DNA of 64,000 bases from Collimonas fungivorans (GTDB taxonomy: Bacteria > Pseudomonadota > Gammaproteobacteria > Burkholderiales > Burkholderiaceae_D), in assembly GCF_001584145.1 (NCBI RefSeq), contig NZ_CP013232.1, positions 1,860,001 through 1,924,000 of the forward strand, written 5' to 3'. The number at the start of each line of letters is the position of its first letter. Position 1 is the stretch's first letter. Position numbers and translations under genes: made by a program. Below the pieces are notes generated by a model. The model saw only the letters and a program-made list of their open reading frames with translations. It was not told the DNA's origin and ran no database searches. Below, piece by piece: positions 38,740-42,912 of this stretch.

Positions 38740-38919
38740 GCCGGTCTCCTTGATTATTTATATTTGGTACAGCTGAGTTGGAGTGTGCAGCCAAAACCTT
38801 ACGCGGGACTTGCTTGAAACTTACGAGAAACTTACGTGGTGGAAATGCTCAAAGGGAAAAGTTGCTACCTGTTAACAATAACAGCTGTGCAGGCCTGCCG
38901 GGAACGCTACAATGGCTAC

Positions 38920-38983
38920 GTCTTCTACAACTCTCCCGAGTTTGGATTCAGCCCGTGACCGCAAGGTTCACGGGCTTTTTTTT
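38920..38983 (+). ncRNA. Small-RNA-like unit, family copy 1
   Basis: A 64-nt unit starting GTCTTCTACAACTCTCCCGA and ending in a terminator, GCCCGTGA / TCACGGGC enclosing CC-GCAA-GG, then eight T. A -10-like TACAAT ends 6 bp before the presumed start. No plus-strand gene lies upstream for it to terminate. It shares its layout, TTTGGATTCAGCCCG core and CCGCAAGG cap with the units at 42471 and 42849. Confidence 0.6.
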
Positions 38984-39011
38984 GCTGGTCCGGCATAGGT
39001 AAAACCGGCAG

Positions 39012-39044
39012 TTGTCATGGCGCAGTCATGCCGCTGTCATGTTA
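39012..39044 (+). promoter_or_regulatory. PHO-box-like array, three 11-bp units
   Basis: TTGTCAT (39012), CAGTCAT (39023) and CTGTCAT (39034) occur at exact 11-bp spacing, each followed by a 4-bp spacer. The PhoB consensus is 11-bp direct repeats of CTGTCAT plus four bases. The third unit matches 7/7 and the others 6/7. A -10-like TAGCAT (39051-39056) follows at the distance usual for PhoB-activated promoters. The first feature downstream is a noncoding terminator at 39179. Confidence 0.55.
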
Positions 39045-39178
39045 GGCGGGTAGCATACGAGGTGTTGATTTAGTGCTCACTTATAAAGCCCGGCCAGGGT
39101 TTTTCGAAGAGTGTTTTGCCATCAGCAGGTTGGCCGGTAGCCTCGATCACCGGCACCAGTTTTGTTGCATCCAGATTA

Positions 39179-39207
39179 ACCCGCTGCCGCAAGGTGCGCG
39201 GGTTTTT
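39179..39207 (+). terminator. GNRA-capped terminator hairpin
   Basis: ACCCGC (39179-39184) pairs with GCGGGT (39198-39203) with an inner CC-GCAA-GG cap, then five T. The preceding TTTTGTTGCATCCAGATTAA is a diverged version of the TTTGGATTCA core of the small-RNA-like family, so it may end a fourth member. Confidence 0.7.
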
Positions 39208-39325
39208 CGTTTTCGGGCCGTTATAATGTTTTGTCCACACGCCACAGCCGTTTATCCCGGAAACCCATGCAAATTCCTGCTGATGATTTGAGCCAGATTG
39301 TTTTGCCGGAAATGCCCGAATCGAT

Positions 39326-39967
39326 TTGCCGGCCGGCTTGCGTTATACGGTCGACGCCGCTCAACTGGAGCGGCTGCAGGCCAGCGGCATTGTCTTGCCG
39401 GATACCCTGGGGCGCGCGGTGCTGAAACGCCAGGTGGAGTTCGCCGCCGGCAGGTTCTGCGCCCGCGAGGCGCTGCAAAAGCTCGGCCACGACAGCCAGG
39501 CGACGCTCGCCATCGGCCAGCATCGGGCGCCGCTGTGGCCCGCCGGCTACCTGGGCTCGATCAGCCACGGCGACGGCCTGGCGCTTGCGGTCGCGGCCAG
39601 CACCCGGGATTGGCGCGGGCTGGGCATCGATATTGAACGGATCCTCACCGACGAGGCGGCACGGCCGCTGCACGAACATCTGATGAAGGCGCCGGAGCTG
39701 GCTATAGGCGAAGCTGCCGGCCTGGCTCTCGGAGAATGGCTGAGCCTGGTTTTTTCGGCCAAGGAAAGCCTGTTCAAGGCGCTTTATCCTTTTGTCGGGC
39801 GTTATTTCGATTTCCTCGACGCCGAAGTGTGCGAATTGCAAGAGCGGCAATCCTGCATCACGCTGAGGCTGGCGCTTACCTTGTCGCCGTCATGCGTCAA
39901 AGGCAGCCTGTACGACGTCCGCTACAGTTATTTTCCCGGCAATGTAGCGACGCTGTGCCTGCTCTGA
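39326..39967 (+). CDS. 4'-phosphopantetheinyl transferase, EntD/Sfp-like; probable N-terminal frameshift
   Basis: A 213-residue enzyme that transfers the phosphopantetheine arm of CoA to carrier proteins. Core motifs: GSISHGDGLALAVAA, GLGIDIERIL (Mg-binding Asp and Glu) and LVFSAKESLFKALYP (the K-E-x-x-x-K box). The open frame starts at TTG 39326. An ATG at 39267 with a GGAAA ribosome site begins MQIPADDLSQIVLPEMPESI in another frame. Adding one T to the TTT run near 39325-39327 joins it to LPAGLRYTVDA, giving a longer, more natural N-terminus. The true gene therefore probably spans 39267-39967. No polyketide or NRPS genes are in view. Confidence 0.8.
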   Translation: MPAGLRYTVDAAQLERLQASGIVLPDTLGRAVLKRQVEFAAGRFCAREALQKLGHDSQATLAIGQHRAPLWPAGYLGSISHGDGLALAVAASTRDWRGLGIDIERILTDEAARPLHEHLMKAPELAIGEAAGLALGEWLSLVFSAKESLFKALYPFVGRYFDFLDAEVCELQERQSCITLRLALTLSPSCVKGSLYDVRYSYFPGNVATLCLL

Positions 39968-40043
39968 CAGCCGCGGCAATTGGCGCCAGGCACTGGATAT
40001 TTGCGGGGCGGCATCTATAATAAAAAGTCTTCTGGAGGGTTTT

Positions 40044-40292
40044 ATGAAGGCTGCCAAGATCATCGAGATGTGGGGTAGGGCAAGTCGCCAGGTACCGCTC
40101 ACCAGCGACGACGATATCGTACAGATGTTTGCCAACGAAATCGCAAAATTGTCTTACAAGCTGACAGAGGAAGAACTTTACCGGCTGATCGCGGTGGGGG
40201 CGCTGGTTTACCAGCGTGGTTTCCGCGAATTCGACGGCAACATCATGGCGGACCTGCTGATCAGGACTTTGCGCGACGGTGGGCGAGCGTAG
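40044..40292 (+). CDS. Small hypothetical protein
   Basis: An 82-residue soluble, helix-rich protein (MKAAKIIEMWGRASRQVPLT) with an acidic middle (TSDDDIVQMFANEIAKL, LTEEELYRLIAVGAL). A strong ribosome site (TGGAGGG) precedes the ATG and a terminator hairpin follows 40 bp after the stop, so it looks like a genuine single-gene unit. I do not recognise a family. Confidence 0.7.
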   Translation: MKAAKIIEMWGRASRQVPLTSDDDIVQMFANEIAKLSYKLTEEELYRLIAVGALVYQRGFREFDGNIMADLLIRTLRDGGRA

Positions 40293-40332
40293 GGCGGATC
40301 CGGTTCCGATACATTCCCGTTTCTCCAATAAA

Positions 40333-40367
40333 AAAGCCTGCTTCCTCATCGGTCGCAGGCTTTCAGA
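40333..40367 (+). terminator. Terminator-like hairpin
   Basis: AAAGCCTGC (40333-40341) pairs with GCAGGCTTT (40355-40363). The loop TTCCTCATCGGTC closely resembles that of the hairpin at 42755-42783 (TTACCTCACGGTC), so the two are probably related copies. It can end the 82-residue gene and, read in reverse with its A-tract, the opposite small gene. Confidence 0.7.
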
Positions 40368-40382
40368 ATGTTGGCTAAAGCT

Positions 40383-40415
40383 TAGACGGGGTCGCCTAGA
40401 CGGGATCGCCTAGAC
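40383..40415. repeat. Tandem 14-bp units at a small gene's stop codon
   Basis: TAGACGGGGTCGCC (40383-40396) and TAGACGGGATCGCC (40397-40410) differ by one base and are followed by a partial third unit TAGAC. The array begins at the stop codon of the minus-strand 73-residue gene, similar to the duplication at the purT end. Confidence 0.8.
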
Positions 40416-40631
40416 CCGTACGATTTTTTCGCCGGTCTGGTCAATCACGAATTTTCCTTCCGCATACGGAGTCAGCGCACGTCCGTCCGCCAGCTTGTAG
40501 ATTTCACGTCCCGGCAGGGAAGCGACGGTGCCGTTTGCTGCAGCCCTTTCAATTGAGTCTTTATAGCACTCGACATGATAGGCGTTCCCTGTTTCTTTGC
40601 CTTTGGCGTCGAATTTTTCTGTTAAATCCAT
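40410..40631 (-). CDS. Small hypothetical protein
   Basis: A 73-residue soluble protein (MDLTEKFDAKGKETGNAYHV) with mixed charge; LADGRALTPYAEGKF and DQTGEKIVRV suggest a small beta structure. A good ribosome site (AAGGAGA) precedes the ATG. I do not recognise a family. Its stop codon begins the tandem 14-bp array. Confidence 0.7.
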   Translation of the reverse strand: MDLTEKFDAKGKETGNAYHVECYKDSIERAAANGTVASLPGREIYKLADGRALTPYAEGKFVIDQTGEKIVRV

Positions 40632-40820
40632 AAAATGTCTCCTTGTGCGCGAGGTTGGAATACCTGCGGTAACGATACCAGATTTTATTTAACGGCGGAG
40701 TAATCAATCCACTGTAATCAATGCGCCGCGCCCTCCGCTTTGCTGCTGGCGATTGCCGCTATCCTCGGCGGCGCGTACCATGAGGGTCTCAGCAAGGCAA
40801 ATTCTACAGAGGAAGCAGTA

Positions 40821-41183
40821 ATGAACGACGGTTTGACAAGAGATGAATACGACGCCCTGGAACAGATCCGCAAGGGCGCGCACGGCAGGGTGACTGCTTG
40901 CGTGGCAAGGAACACCAAGCGCCTGGCCGGACTCAAGTACATTGCATATGAAAAGAACGGCGGCCTGTCATTGACCGAGAAAGGGCAGCAGACCCTGTTC
41001 ATCAGGAATTGCATTGAAGGCCTGCGCGCGGTGGCCAGCGATCCTGGCGCCAAGCTGGCGGCTGACGTCGCCATGTTCCTCGGCAAAAAAGGGCATGTCA
41101 GCGCCCGGCCTGCCGGCGACGGTTACGATATCACCGAAAAAGGGCGCGAATCCCTGGCGGATATCGATTCTTCGGCGGCTTGA
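40821..41183 (+). CDS. Hypothetical protein with two winged-helix-like repeats
   Basis: A 120-residue protein (MNDGLTRDEYDALEQIRKGA). The phrases GLSLTEKGQQTL (about 57-68) and GYDITEKGRESL (about 102-113) repeat the wing-plus-TEKG ending common in winged-helix DNA-binding domains, and helical segments precede each. A DNA-binding role is possible but unproven. The ATG at 40821 follows AGAGGAAG; the frame opens upstream at 40740 without a better start. Confidence 0.65.
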   Translation: MNDGLTRDEYDALEQIRKGAHGRVTACVARNTKRLAGLKYIAYEKNGGLSLTEKGQQTLFIRNCIEGLRAVASDPGAKLAADVAMFLGKKGHVSARPAGDGYDITEKGRESLADIDSSAA

Positions 41184-41283
41184 GCGGCCATACCGGCGCG
41201 GCACAGCTTATGCTCGTGGTATCAAGTTTGTGCGCTTAGTAAAAAATCATATAAATCAAACACTTGATTAAAATTCTTGATGG

Positions 41284-41318
41284 TTATCCACAGGACTGTC
41301 CACAATTTCTGTGGGTAA
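41284..41318. promoter_or_regulatory. Cluster of DnaA-box-like sequences
   Basis: A perfect DnaA box TTATCCACA (41284-41292), a 7/9 match CTGTCCACA (41296-41304) and an inverted 8/9 match TGTGGGTAA (41310-41318). GTTATCCACAG and CTGTGGGTAAC also form an imperfect 11-bp dyad. A 70-bp AT-rich stretch lies just upstream (about 41225-41280). It precedes the oxidoreductase gene by 35 bp, so DnaA-dependent regulation is possible. Confidence 0.5.
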
Positions 41319-41352
41319 CTTTCGGTCCATCATGCAATTGAAAGAGAAACCC

Positions 41353-42393
41353 ATGTTGAACATAGGCCTATTAGGCTACGGCTTTGCCGGCGCCACTTTC
41401 CACGCACCGCTGATCGGGCATTCCGGCCGCACCGCGCTCGGCGCGATCGCCAGCAGCCAGGCCGAGGCCGCCGCCCAGGCTTGGCCAGAGGCGCGCATCG
41501 TTGCCGATCTCGACGCCTTGCTGGCCGATGGCGGACTCGACTGCATCGTGATCGCGACGCCGAACGATACCCATTTTGAATTCGCCCGGCGCACGCTGGC
41601 TGCCGGCAAGCATGTGGTGGTCGACAAGCCGGTCACCCTGAGCGCGCAAGAGGCGCGCATCCTGGCGCGCACGGCAGCCGACAGCAAGCTGTTGCTGGCG
41701 CCGTTCCATAACCGGCGCTGGGATGGCGATTTCCGCACCGTGCAGGCGCTGATCGCCAGCGGCCGGCTGGGCCACGTCACGCATTTCGAGTCGCATTTCG
41801 ACCGTTTCCGGCCCGCGGTGCGGCAGCGCTGGCGCGAAGACGCCTCAAACGGTGGCGGCCTGCTGTATGACCTTGGGCCGCACCTGGTCGACCAGGCACT
41901 GACATTGTTTGGCGCCCCGCAAAACGTCAGCGCGACTATCGGCACCTACCGCGAACACGCCAAGGCTGACGATTATGTCCACTTGCAGCTGGGCTATGCG
42001 GACAAGCAGGTGGTATTGCATGCCAGCGCCCTGAGCGCGCTGGAGGCGCCGCGTTTCACGATCCACGGCCGCCGCGGCAGTTATCTGAAAACCGGGCTCG
42101 ACAGCCAGGAAGACCAGCTCAAGGCTGGTTTGCGCCCCGGACATCCGGGCTGGGCCAAAAACCCGCCGGGCTTGATTCGCGAAGTCGACGGCGAACTTGA
42201 CCTGCGTGGCGAACTGGCCACCCTGGATGGCGCTTACGTGGAATTTTACCGGGCCCTGGCTGCCTCGATCCAGGAAGGCGCGCCGTTTCCGGTCACTGTG
42301 GACGCCGCGGTCGACGTCGCCGAAATCCTCGAGCTGGCGCGCCAAAGCGCCACGGAAGGGCGCCGCCTGCCTTATGTGGCGACTGGATGGTAG
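41353..42393 (+). CDS. Gfo/Idh/MocA-family oxidoreductase
   Basis: A 346-residue NAD(P)-dependent dehydrogenase. The Rossmann motif is IGLLGYGFAGATFHAPLI near the N-terminus. VVDKPVTLSAQEARIL (E-K-P-like) and RRWDGDFRTVQALI follow, and GGGLLYDLGPHLVDQALTLFG carries the conserved D-x-x-x-H active-site segment. It resembles E. coli YdgJ/YhhX-type proteins acting on sugars or inositols. ATG 41353 follows GAGAAA. It is followed by a small-RNA-like unit rather than an obvious own terminator. Confidence 0.88.
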   Translation: MLNIGLLGYGFAGATFHAPLIGHSGRTALGAIASSQAEAAAQAWPEARIVADLDALLADGGLDCIVIATPNDTHFEFARRTLAAGKHVVVDKPVTLSAQEARILARTAADSKLLLAPFHNRRWDGDFRTVQALIASGRLGHVTHFESHFDRFRPAVRQRWREDASNGGGLLYDLGPHLVDQALTLFGAPQNVSATIGTYREHAKADDYVHLQLGYADKQVVLHASALSALEAPRFTIHGRRGSYLKTGLDSQEDQLKAGLRPGHPGWAKNPPGLIREVDGELDLRGELATLDGAYVEFYRALAASIQEGAPFPVTVDAAVDVAEILELARQSATEGRRLPYVATGW

Positions 42394-42433
42394 CGCTATC
42401 ATCCTGGTGAATAACTGTTATGCGTTAAATAAA

Positions 42434-42463
42434 TTGGCTGTCCCCGGGCCGGGTCTATATAGT
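42434..42463 (+). promoter_or_regulatory. Promoter of small-RNA-like copy 2
   Basis: TTGGCT (42434-42439) and TATAGT (42458-42463) are 18 bp apart; TATATA (42456-42461) is an alternative -10 at 16 bp. The presumed start G is 42471. Confidence 0.55.
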
Positions 42464-42470
42464 TGCACCT

Positions 42471-42537
42471 GTCTCCTCCAACACCTCCCAAGGTTTGGAT
42501 TCAAGCCCGCGCCGCAAGGTCTCGCGGGCTTTTTTTT
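42471..42537 (+). ncRNA. Small-RNA-like unit, family copy 2
   Basis: A 67-nt unit starting GTCTCCTCCAACACCTCCCA. The 5' part can form a hairpin (TCCAA..ACC with GGT..TTGGA) exposing a C-rich loop. The terminator is GCCCGCG / CGCGGGC around CC-GCAA-GG, then eight T. CTCCTCC is complementary to Shine-Dalgarno sequence. It is near-identical to copy 3 (42849) and close to copy 1 (38920). Confidence 0.65.
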
Positions 42538-42591
42538 GCCTGCGGGATTTGTGGCGATGTGGTGTAAATACACACGGCCTTTGGCTTTAGC

Positions 42592-42620
42592 TTGCATTTC
42601 CTGAAAGTTCTGTGTATAAT
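42592..42620 (+). promoter_or_regulatory. Strong sigma70-like promoter without a downstream gene
   Basis: TTGCAT (42592-42597) and a perfect TATAAT (42615-42620) with 17-bp spacing, one of the best-looking promoters in the window. It leads into noncoding DNA that ends in a terminator. Confidence 0.75.
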
Positions 42621-42626
42621 TCAGAA

Positions 42627-42787
42627 ATTGCCTGTCGCATATCAAGTAATTCAATGCGATCCGGGCCAATACAAGAGTAGATTCGTTACACGTCGGGGCC
42701 ACTTTCCAGATAGGACTGGGTTTCGGGAATCTTCTCCTGTATTGAAGAATATGAAAACCTGCTTACCTCACGGTCGCAGGTTTTTTT
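42627..42787 (+). ncRNA. Probable noncoding RNA of about 160 nt
   Basis: Bounded by the promoter at 42592-42620 and the terminator AAACCTGC (42755-42762) / GCAGGTTT (42776-42783) with seven T. The longest ATG reading inside is eight codons. A TCTTC..GAAGA hairpin near 42730-42750 exposes TCCTG. The terminator loop resembles that at 40333-40363. Confidence 0.6.
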
Positions 42788-42813
42788 GCGTCTGGTACCG
42801 TATTTTTACTATA

Positions 42814-42842
42814 TTGCGGTGCGCCATATTTCACCTTATAGT
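42814..42842 (+). promoter_or_regulatory. Promoter of small-RNA-like copy 3
   Basis: TTGCGG (42814-42819) and TATAGT (42837-42842) with exactly 17-bp spacing, placing the start at about G42849. Confidence 0.6.
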
Positions 42843-42848
42843 GGATTT

Positions 42849-42912
42849 GTCTCCTCCAACCCCCTATGGTTTGGATTCAGCCCGCGCCGCAAGGCTCTGC
42901 GGGCTTTTTTTT
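42849..42912 (+). ncRNA. Small-RNA-like unit, family copy 3
   Basis: A 64-nt unit starting GTCTCCTCCAACCCCCTATG, followed by the core GGTTTGGATTCAGCCCGCG and a terminator around CC-GCAA-GG with eight T. It differs from copy 2 mainly in the loop of the first hairpin. The preceding element is another terminator (42787), so this unit cannot be ending an upstream gene's transcript. Confidence 0.65.

What the first reader, a model, noticed from the sequence alone, without database searches (positions are those of the whole stretch)
38920..42912. Three near-identical ~65-nt promoter-terminator units: a likely multicopy small-RNA family with an anti-Shine-Dalgarno 5' end
Units at 38920-38983, 42471-42537 and 42849-42912 share GTCTYCTMCAAC at the 5' end, TTTGGATTCA..GCCCG in the middle and a terminator whose stem is capped by CC-GCAA-GG (GNRA loop), then T8. 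Each has a -10 hexamer (TACAAT, TATAGT, TATAGT) ending 6-7 bp before the conserved G. Copies 2 and 3 also have a -35-like hexamer at 17-18 bp. No plus-strand gene precedes copy 1, and copy 3 follows another terminator, so they are not gene terminators. The loop of the first hairpin varies in C-rich sequence while the scaffold is constant. CTCCTCC is complementary to ribosome-binding sites. By analogy with CCUCCUCCC-type 'cuckoo' RNAs of alphaproteobacteria (established knowledge), they could repress translation of several mRNAs; that role is inference.
Basis: partly seen in the sequence, partly recalled or inferred. Interest (0 to 1): 0.78.

Follow-up and report, generated by a model that had tools for sequence, protein, structure and literature searches.

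The report
Known small RNAs beside new hairpin
The three repeated units belong to an already known family of small RNAs that probably shut down translation by covering ribosome-binding sites, and between two of them lies a different, apparently undescribed hairpin RNA whose core also turns up next to transfer-RNA genes of bacteria and viruses.

Summary
Units 2 and 3 match Rfam RF02278, 'Betaproteobacteria toxic small RNA', above its cut-off. Unit 1 is a diverged relative (40.2 bits, cut-off 50). The genome (Collimonas) holds eight copies over the cut-off plus unit 1, and the family is widespread in Oxalobacteraceae. So these are new members of a known kind, not cuckoo RNAs.

Two things go further. 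Unit 1 keeps its fold and promoter across Collimonas but lacks the anti-Shine-Dalgarno tail. Each paralogue has its own conserved upstream element.

Between units 2 and 3 (hairpin 42666-42745) is a separate RNA with no Rfam match. It shows strong compensatory change (18 of 27 pairs), is almost confined to Oxalobacteraceae in my samples, forms arrays of 2-5, and sits by tRNA-Gly/Cys genes, thrS, a serine acetyltransferase gene or RF02278 copies. Its core hairpin also occurs in viral contigs, half of the strict matches within 250 nt of a tRNA gene. Its function is unknown; I favour a protein-binding RNA.

The parts
38869..38884 (+). Inverted repeat CTGTTA-N4-TAACAG upstream of copy 1 (CTGTCA-N4-TGACAG in most relatives): operator-like dyad, perfect in 10 of 12 orthologues, one arm changed in 2 (L042, L043)
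38908..38913 (+). -10 hexamer TACAAT of copy 1 (TACAAT in 10 of 12 orthologues, TAAAAT in 2)
38920..38983 (+). Copy 1: diverged RF02278-like sRNA, 40.2 bits (below cut-off), 5' tail GUCUUCUACAAC
42424..42438 (+). Conserved element upstream of copy 2 (GTTAAATAAATTGGC), includes part of the -35-like TTGGCT
42458..42463 (+). -10 hexamer TATAGT of copy 2
42471..42537 (+). Copy 2: RF02278 sRNA, 55.8 bits
42592..42620 (+). Likely promoter of the unassigned RNA: TTGCAT (42592-42597), 17 bp, TATAAT (42615-42620); 77% mean identity in 14 genomes, -10 altered in some of them
   Evidence: read; not among the sites of the scan
42666..42745 (+). Unassigned structured RNA (model R1): long hairpin with near-invariant bulged A and CA-GAUA-G loop; 98.4% mean identity in 14 genomes
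   Evidence: no Rfam match
42756..42786 (+). Terminator-like hairpin and T run of the unassigned RNA
42797..42818 (+). Conserved element upstream of copy 3 (21 of 22 positions invariant in 14 genomes), overlaps the -35-like TTGCGG
42837..42842 (+). -10 hexamer TATAGT of copy 3
42849..42912 (+). Copy 3: RF02278 sRNA, 58.7 bits

Best explanation
The three units are most likely independently transcribed sRNAs of the RF02278 'double-hairpin' (toxic sRNA) kind in a Collimonas chromosome. Copies 2 and 3 carry the standard CU-rich 5' tail and a C-rich first loop. Most likely they pair, with Hfq, to purine-rich ribosome-binding sites of many mRNAs and block initiation, as reported for relatives. Copy 1 is a paralogue with the same fold but a changed tail, so it probably has other targets. 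Paralogues differ strongly in their promoter regions, so a similar repressor may be delivered under different conditions. Shown here: family match (copies 2 and 3), predicted fold, copy number, conservation of promoter regions. Inferred from published relatives: transcription, Hfq use, RBS pairing, growth inhibition.
For: Rfam matches over cut-off for copies 2 and 3, sub-threshold for copy 1. 8 copies over cut-off in this genome; 14 of 15 genus genomes, 126 of 145 family genomes and 114 of 300 order genomes have a match over cut-off. Two-hairpin fold better than shuffles. Conservation is high at -50..-28, at -14..0 and in the RNA, and lower between and around them, separately for each paralogue. 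Perfect 7-nt matches to the standard tail at 9 of 393 sampled gene starts, against mean 2.5 and maximum 8 for 60 permuted tails. Literature passages: CU-rich regions predicted over the RBS, slower growth on overexpression of ncS27 in B. cenocepacia (PMC5688073); four RF02278 RNAs listed in Herbaspirillum seropedicae (PMC7011215); the similar S17 of Bordetella co-precipitates with Hfq and represses a target (PMC11722255).
Against: No transcript data from Collimonas. In the same count an upstream background window gave 5 of 393, so the excess at gene starts is modest, and start sites were called crudely. Copy 1 fails the family cut-off and its tail shows no excess (2 of 393; permuted mean 2.2). 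The loops of copies 2 and 3 show no excess either (1 and 3 of 393; background 5 and 3). S17S overexpression impaired E. coli growth only modestly (PMC11722255), so 'toxic' may not hold for all relatives.
Confidence: 0.87

Rival explanations
1. The units are only intrinsic terminators, or read-through products of neighbouring genes.
For: Each ends in a GC-rich stem and T8; copy 2 lies 77 nt behind an oxidoreductase gene on the same strand.
Against: Separately conserved promoter regions; conserved 5' tail and first hairpin; family match over the whole length; the gene before copy 1, an MFS transporter, is on the minus strand.
Confidence: 0.03
2. Copy 1 is a decaying pseudogene rather than a paralogue with new targets.
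For: Below the family cut-off; tail varies between species (GUCUUCUACAAC, GUCUUCUACAC, GUCUCCUACAGC, GUCUCCUCAAC); no excess of matches at gene starts.
Against: Found in 12 of 14 genomes of the genus at the same place (11 by pattern; one more, G013, by covariance model, read), with the loop UCUCCC(C)GAG, promoter and dyad largely conserved (-50..-28 identity 0.88, RNA 0.93).
Confidence: 0.25
3. The RNAs belong to the cuckoo RNAs of alphaproteobacteria (family recalled, no call).
For: CU-rich anti-Shine-Dalgarno motif, several copies.
Against: No CCUCCUCCC in any of the three; full-length match to a different, betaproteobacterial family.
Confidence: 0.02
4. The RNA between copies 2 and 3 is a sponge that pairs with the RF02278 RNAs.
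For: Shared neighbourhood: 14 of 14 Collimonas clusters and 8 of 42 other loci scanned for both, with an RF02278 match downstream on the same strand (in two of the eight, L062 and L077, the RF02278 matches are below cut-off).
Against: Predicted duplex with each of the three sRNAs is no better than with shuffled sequence: 67, 138 and 59 of 200 shuffles as good. R1 occurs at 34 of the 42 other loci without an RF02278 match, and in a 1.7-Mb genus member (G010) with only one weak RF02278 match.
Confidence: 0.06
5. The R1 elements are DNA-level repeats (REP or MITE type), not RNAs.
For: Palindromic, dispersed, tandem arrays.
Against: Pair cells show 217 G-U/U-G against 19 A-C/C-A, a strand bias that points to selection on the RNA strand (the alignment was fitted to the model, which leans this way); near-invariant unpaired bases; likely promoter and a terminator in the window; low copy number (4 places in this genome).
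Confidence: 0.07

Closest known systems
RF02278 Betaproteobacteria toxic sRNA (double-hairpin RNAs ncS03, ncS05, ncS27, ncS62 of Burkholderia cenocepacia; Hsnc059/063/086/107 of Herbaspirillum seropedicae)
   Same: Whole-length covariance-model match, two hairpins, CU-rich tail and loop, several copies per genome.
   Different: More copies here (8 over cut-off; 9-15 matches in 14 of 15 genus genomes, against three to five stated for Burkholderia in PMC5688073, which also says they are not in tandem); copies 1-3 lie within 4 kb; copy 1 lacks the anti-Shine-Dalgarno tail.
Bordetella S17S
   Same: Conserved 5' end (Site 1) and loop (Site 2) predicted to pair over ribosome-binding sites; Hfq-bound; the paper itself notes the likeness to RF02278.
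   Different: S17S is argued to be processed from a longer RNA; the units here have promoter hexamers directly before the conserved G.
anti-hemB, RF02837
   Same: Weak model similarity, 18-20 bits for all three copies.
   Different: Far below its cut-off of 49.5; its model has an extra hairpin.
GOLLD and ROOL RNAs (for the RNA between copies 2 and 3)
   Same: Structured RNAs of unknown function, often near tRNA islands of phages (PMC12286853, passages seen).
   Different: Those are very large and complex; R1 is one 80-nt hairpin, mostly chromosomal where I found it. No Rfam family matched R1.
CsrB/RsmZ-type protein-sequestering RNAs and the E. coli 3'ETS-leuZ tRNA-operon spacer (both recalled, no call)
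   Same: Repeated binding hairpins; RNA from a Gly-Cys tRNA operon.
   Different: The near-invariant loop of R1 is CA-GAUA-G, not a GGA loop; no pairing partner was found.

Membership tests
RF02278 (copies 2 and 3) | covariance-model score at or over the gathering score of 50 | tested here: met
   55.8 and 58.7 bits
RF02278 (copy 1) | covariance-model score at or over the gathering score of 50 | tested here: not met
   40.2 bits, E 1e-5; filed as a diverged relative, not a full member
RF02278 | two hairpins, the second terminator-like | tested here: met
   predicted fold of all three
RF02278 (copies 2 and 3) | unpaired CU-rich 5' end complementary to ribosome-binding sites | tested here: met
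   GUCUCC unpaired in the predicted fold; modest excess of matches at gene starts
RF02278 (copy 1) | unpaired CU-rich 5' end complementary to ribosome-binding sites | tested here: not met
   GUCUUCUACAAC; 2 of 393 starts, permuted mean 2.2
RF02278 | short independent transcript | not testable with these tools
   promoter regions conserved, no RNA data
RF02278 | growth inhibition on overexpression | not testable with these tools
   reported for relatives only
anti-hemB RF02837 | score at or over 49.5 | tested here: not met
   18.1-19.9 bits
cuckoo RNAs (definition recalled) | CCUCCUCCC motif | tested here: not met
   absent from the three units
any Rfam 15 family, for the RNA at 42666-42745 | match at E up to 1 or 10 | tested here: not met
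   two chance-level matches, 14.4 and 16 bits against cut-offs of 60; no match overlaps R1 in the related loci scanned

The most novel reading that the evidence does not exclude
The RNA between copies 2 and 3 is a member of an undescribed RNA family of Oxalobacteraceae: an 80-nt hairpin with a near-invariant bulged A and a CA-GAUA-G loop, single or in arrays of 2-5, found by tRNA-Gly/Cys operons, thrS, a serine acetyltransferase gene and RF02278 sRNAs. Its core hairpin is also carried by phages, often beside tRNA genes. It would work by presenting the bulge-and-loop module to a host protein (a tRNA-linked or regulatory RNA-binding protein), with arrays raising the number of binding sites, and phages would use the same module to borrow or occupy that protein.
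Probability: 0.45. Interest if true: 0.75.

Novelty: new member of a known kind. Interest (0 to 1): 0.5.

Why it matters
For RF02278 it shows an amplified, locally clustered set in which paralogues keep a similar RNA but separate conserved promoter regions, and one paralogue with a changed tail that falls below the Rfam cut-off. That makes target divergence within one sRNA family testable. The larger point is the unassigned RNA inside the interval: a strongly covarying, tandemly repeated hairpin shared between chromosomes and viral tRNA regions, with no Rfam entry found. If it binds a host protein, that protein is something bacteria and their phages both handle through RNA.

Tried and rejected
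Considered and rejected: ordinary terminators; cuckoo-RNA membership; anti-hemB membership; R1 as a sponge for RF02278 RNAs; R1 as DNA repeats. A wider reading that R1 is always tRNA-linked was dropped: only 1 of the 4 R1 places in this genome is beside tRNAs. The 47-nt phage core query found no match in the annotated phage or plasmid collections at E up to 0.1 (short query, low power), so no named phage can be given. Target counting gave only modest support. Three weak RF02278 matches in this genome were not counted (26.9, 24.1 and 18.3 bits): at E up to 1, 11 of 14 control genomes also ring; the 26.9-bit one (L010, E 0.006) may still be a real diverged copy. Reverse-strand R1 matches (36 bits or less) are taken as shadows of the palindrome and were kept out of alignment A4 by an E-value limit, which also left out a partial match in L151 (38.6 bits). 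Six of the 73 sources given (L134, L135, L137, L146, L156, L160) were not given. Papers: PMC3317161 (Kimelman 2012) is not held; its content is known only from passages that cite it. 'Undescribed' for R1 rests on Rfam 15 and on the listings of full-text searches, none of which names such an RNA; of those papers only passages of PMC12286853 were seen, and supplements could not be read.
Full report
OBSERVATION. RF02278, 'Betaproteobacteria toxic small RNA', matches 42848-42912 with 58.7 bits and 42470-42537 with 55.8 bits (cut-off 50). The first unit, 38919-38983, scores 40.2 bits, E 1e-5. All three fold as two hairpins, z -5.0, -4.2 and -3.4 against shuffles. The -10 hexamers and spacings are as described; no clear -35 is seen for copy 1. 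The GCAA-capped stem is not peculiar to the units, since another terminator at 39180-39207 has it.

COPY NUMBER AND DISTRIBUTION. The window's own genome (5.6 Mb, one contig) has 8 copies over cut-off and copy 1 below it. In the genus, 14 of 15 genomes have a match over cut-off, with 9-15 matches each at E up to 0.01; the exception is a 1.7-Mb genome with one weak match (at that threshold 1 of 14 control genomes rings). In the family sample 126 of 145 genomes have a match over cut-off, up to 20 matches at E up to 1e-4 in one genome. In the order sample 114 of 300 do; outside the family none exceeds 5 matches at that E. These large searches used stricter filters, so they are lower bounds.

ANATOMY. 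In 14 Collimonas genomes (window plus 13 fetched) the same cluster recurs. Copies 2 and 3 were found in 14 of 14, copy 1 in 12 (11 by pattern; one more by covariance model, read), and a fourth copy, not found in this window, in 9. Each of the four has its own conserved upstream block: mean majority identity at -50..-28 is 0.88, 0.93, 0.98 and 0.92 for copies 1-4, against 0.65, 0.80, 0.76 and 0.66 at -130..-50, 0.62-0.83 at -28..-14, 0.84-0.95 at -14..0, 0.93, 0.96, 0.88 and 0.79 in the RNA, and 0.40-0.63 behind it. Copy 1 has a dyad CTGTCA-N4-TGACAG. It is perfect in 10 of 12 orthologues; in this window both arms differ from the majority together (CTGTTA-N4-TAACAG), in two others only one arm differs. 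Copy 4 has GTATGC...GCATAC in its consensus. So the RNAs are similar but their control regions differ.

COPY 1. Its tail reads GUCUUCUACAAC instead of GUCUCCUCCAAC, with other changes in related species, while the loop UCUCCC(C)GAG, stem and promoter are largely kept. In 393 genes called from 464 kb of this genome, the standard tail has a perfect 7-nt match just before 9 starts (60 permuted tails: mean 2.5, maximum 8) and copy 1's tail before 2 (permuted mean 2.2). A window further upstream gave 5 for each, so the excess for the standard tail is modest; the first loops of the three copies gave 4, 1 and 3, no excess over background (5, 5 and 3).

HOW IT WORKS. Direct evidence comes from relatives. 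In B. cenocepacia four RF02278 RNAs are transcribed, their CU-rich parts are predicted to cover ribosome-binding sites, overexpression of ncS27 slows growth and silencing has the opposite effect (PMC5688073, passages). A review states that ncS27 affects many predicted targets in amino-acid and sugar use (PMC10987360, passages). Herbaspirillum seropedicae has four RF02278 RNAs among its listed sRNAs (PMC7011215, passages). Bordetella S17S, whose 5' region differs by 2 nt from an RF02278 RNA, binds Hfq and represses a target; it only modestly impaired E. coli growth (PMC11722255, passages). The same mechanism is the best guess here. Transcription, Hfq use and targets in Collimonas are inferred.

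THE RNA BETWEEN COPIES 2 AND 3. Aligning this gap in 14 genomes showed a block that is not RF02278. Mean identity is 0.98 over the hairpin 42666-42745 (72 of 80 positions invariant) and 0.94 over its terminator, against 0.55 just behind copy 2 and 0.68 in the 5' leader. A likely promoter TTGCAT-17 bp-TATAAT lies before it, with 0.77 identity and an altered -10 in some relatives. The whole folds at -44.2 kcal/mol, z -4.58. No Rfam family matches it, and none overlaps R1 in the related loci scanned.

R1 RELATIVES. A covariance model R1 was built from 23 sequences. It finds matches in 15 of 15 Collimonas genomes (the listed counts include reverse-strand shadows), in 30 of 141 family genomes and 11 of 44 genera (two of the 30, G053 and G093, are weak), in 4 of 300 order genomes of which one, weak, lies outside the family, and in 1 of 274 class genomes, its own. 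An exact core pattern in the named genome collection gave 43 stretches: Collimonas, Herbaspirillum, Duganella, Undibacterium, other Oxalobacteraceae, and three MAGs named only as Betaproteobacteria, Proteobacteria and Gallionellaceae. On 99 matches (94 distinct rows) 95.2% of pair cells are standard pairs, 18 of 27 pairs have changes on both sides, and none of 500 shuffles reaches the observed values; sliding the partners gives 35-50%. G-U cells number 217 against 19 A-C, which points to selection on the RNA strand. These counts lean towards the model because the alignment was fitted to it. A bulged A in CAC and a CA-GAUA-G loop are nearly invariant, though a few loci differ in the loop.

R1 SURROUNDINGS. 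Collimonas: about 130-155 nt behind the last tRNA of a Gly-Cys-Gly cluster, single or in arrays of up to 5 (L074, L076, L086, L160, L164-L168); pgsA lies before the tRNAs in L074. Another genus (g15): 14-31 nt before a tRNA-Gly (L063, L065). Herbaspirillum and a Duganella MAG: arrays of 4-5, about 270-330 nt upstream of thrS in the three loci examined for it, L129, L161 and L138 (family scan of L129 only). Genus g27, by identical elements probably Herbaspirillum: about 160 nt upstream of a serine O-acetyltransferase (L108; over the EpsC cut-off, under the cysE one). RF02278 follows R1 on the same strand in 14 of 14 Collimonas clusters and in 8 of 42 other loci scanned for both: L060, L062, L077, L102, L121, L141, L144, L145 (48 loci were given, of which five repeat a place and two, L107 and L135, hold the same element; thresholds differed between the three scans, and in L062 and L077 the matches are below cut-off). 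Many other loci have none of these neighbours within the stretch held.

PHAGES. The strict core occurs in 14 viral-contig stretches and a looser one in 13, 18 loci in all. ARAGORN finds a tRNA within 250 nt in 7 of the 14 strict ones, against 4.7% of positions in the same loci; 3 of the 14 share one sequence and 2 another, so 6 of 11 distinct ones. None of the four loci found only by the looser pattern has a tRNA in the stretch held. An Oxalobacteraceae contig with the core next to five tRNA genes also encodes a phage portal protein. A 47-nt phage query found nothing in the annotated phage or plasmid sets.

READING OF R1. It does not look like a pairing sponge for the RF02278 RNAs. Repetition, near-constant loop and bulge, and freedom of context suggest a protein-binding RNA. 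That is inference; no partner is known.

VERDICT. The finding itself is a new set of members of a known family, with one diverged relative. The unassigned hairpin RNA is the part most worth following.

Noticed in passing
window 42592-42786: Separate promoter-hairpin-terminator RNA without an Rfam family, between copies 2 and 3; relatives in arrays and by tRNA genes, core also in viral contigs.
   Followed up: yes
L164, L167, L074, L076, L129, L161, L124, L127, L138: Tandem arrays of 3-5 R1 hairpins, period about 90-140 nt; in L129, L161 and L138 upstream of thrS.
   Followed up: partly
L205-L222, L132: Viral contigs (and a contig with a phage portal gene) with the R1 core hairpin, five of the viral ones within 10-50 nt of tRNA genes.
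   Followed up: partly
L104 (genome G010): A 1.7-Mb genus member with no RF02278 match over cut-off keeps one R1 element about 220 nt behind tRNA-Cys.
   Followed up: no
window 39180-39207: Another GCAA-capped terminator very like those of the units but with no RF02278 match.
   Followed up: no
window 38744-38751 (minus strand): The MFS transporter gene next to copy 1 has AAGGAGAC before its start, a 7-nt match to the standard RF02278 tail.
   Followed up: no
L077 1294-1361: One locus matches both RF02278 (44.6 bits) and anti-hemB RF02837 (28.9 bits), both below cut-off, so the two families may share an origin.
   Followed up: no
L041-L043, L046, L049-L053: A fourth RF02278 copy about 2.3-2.5 kb behind copy 3 in nine relatives, with an operator-like dyad, not found in this genome's cluster.
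   Followed up: partly
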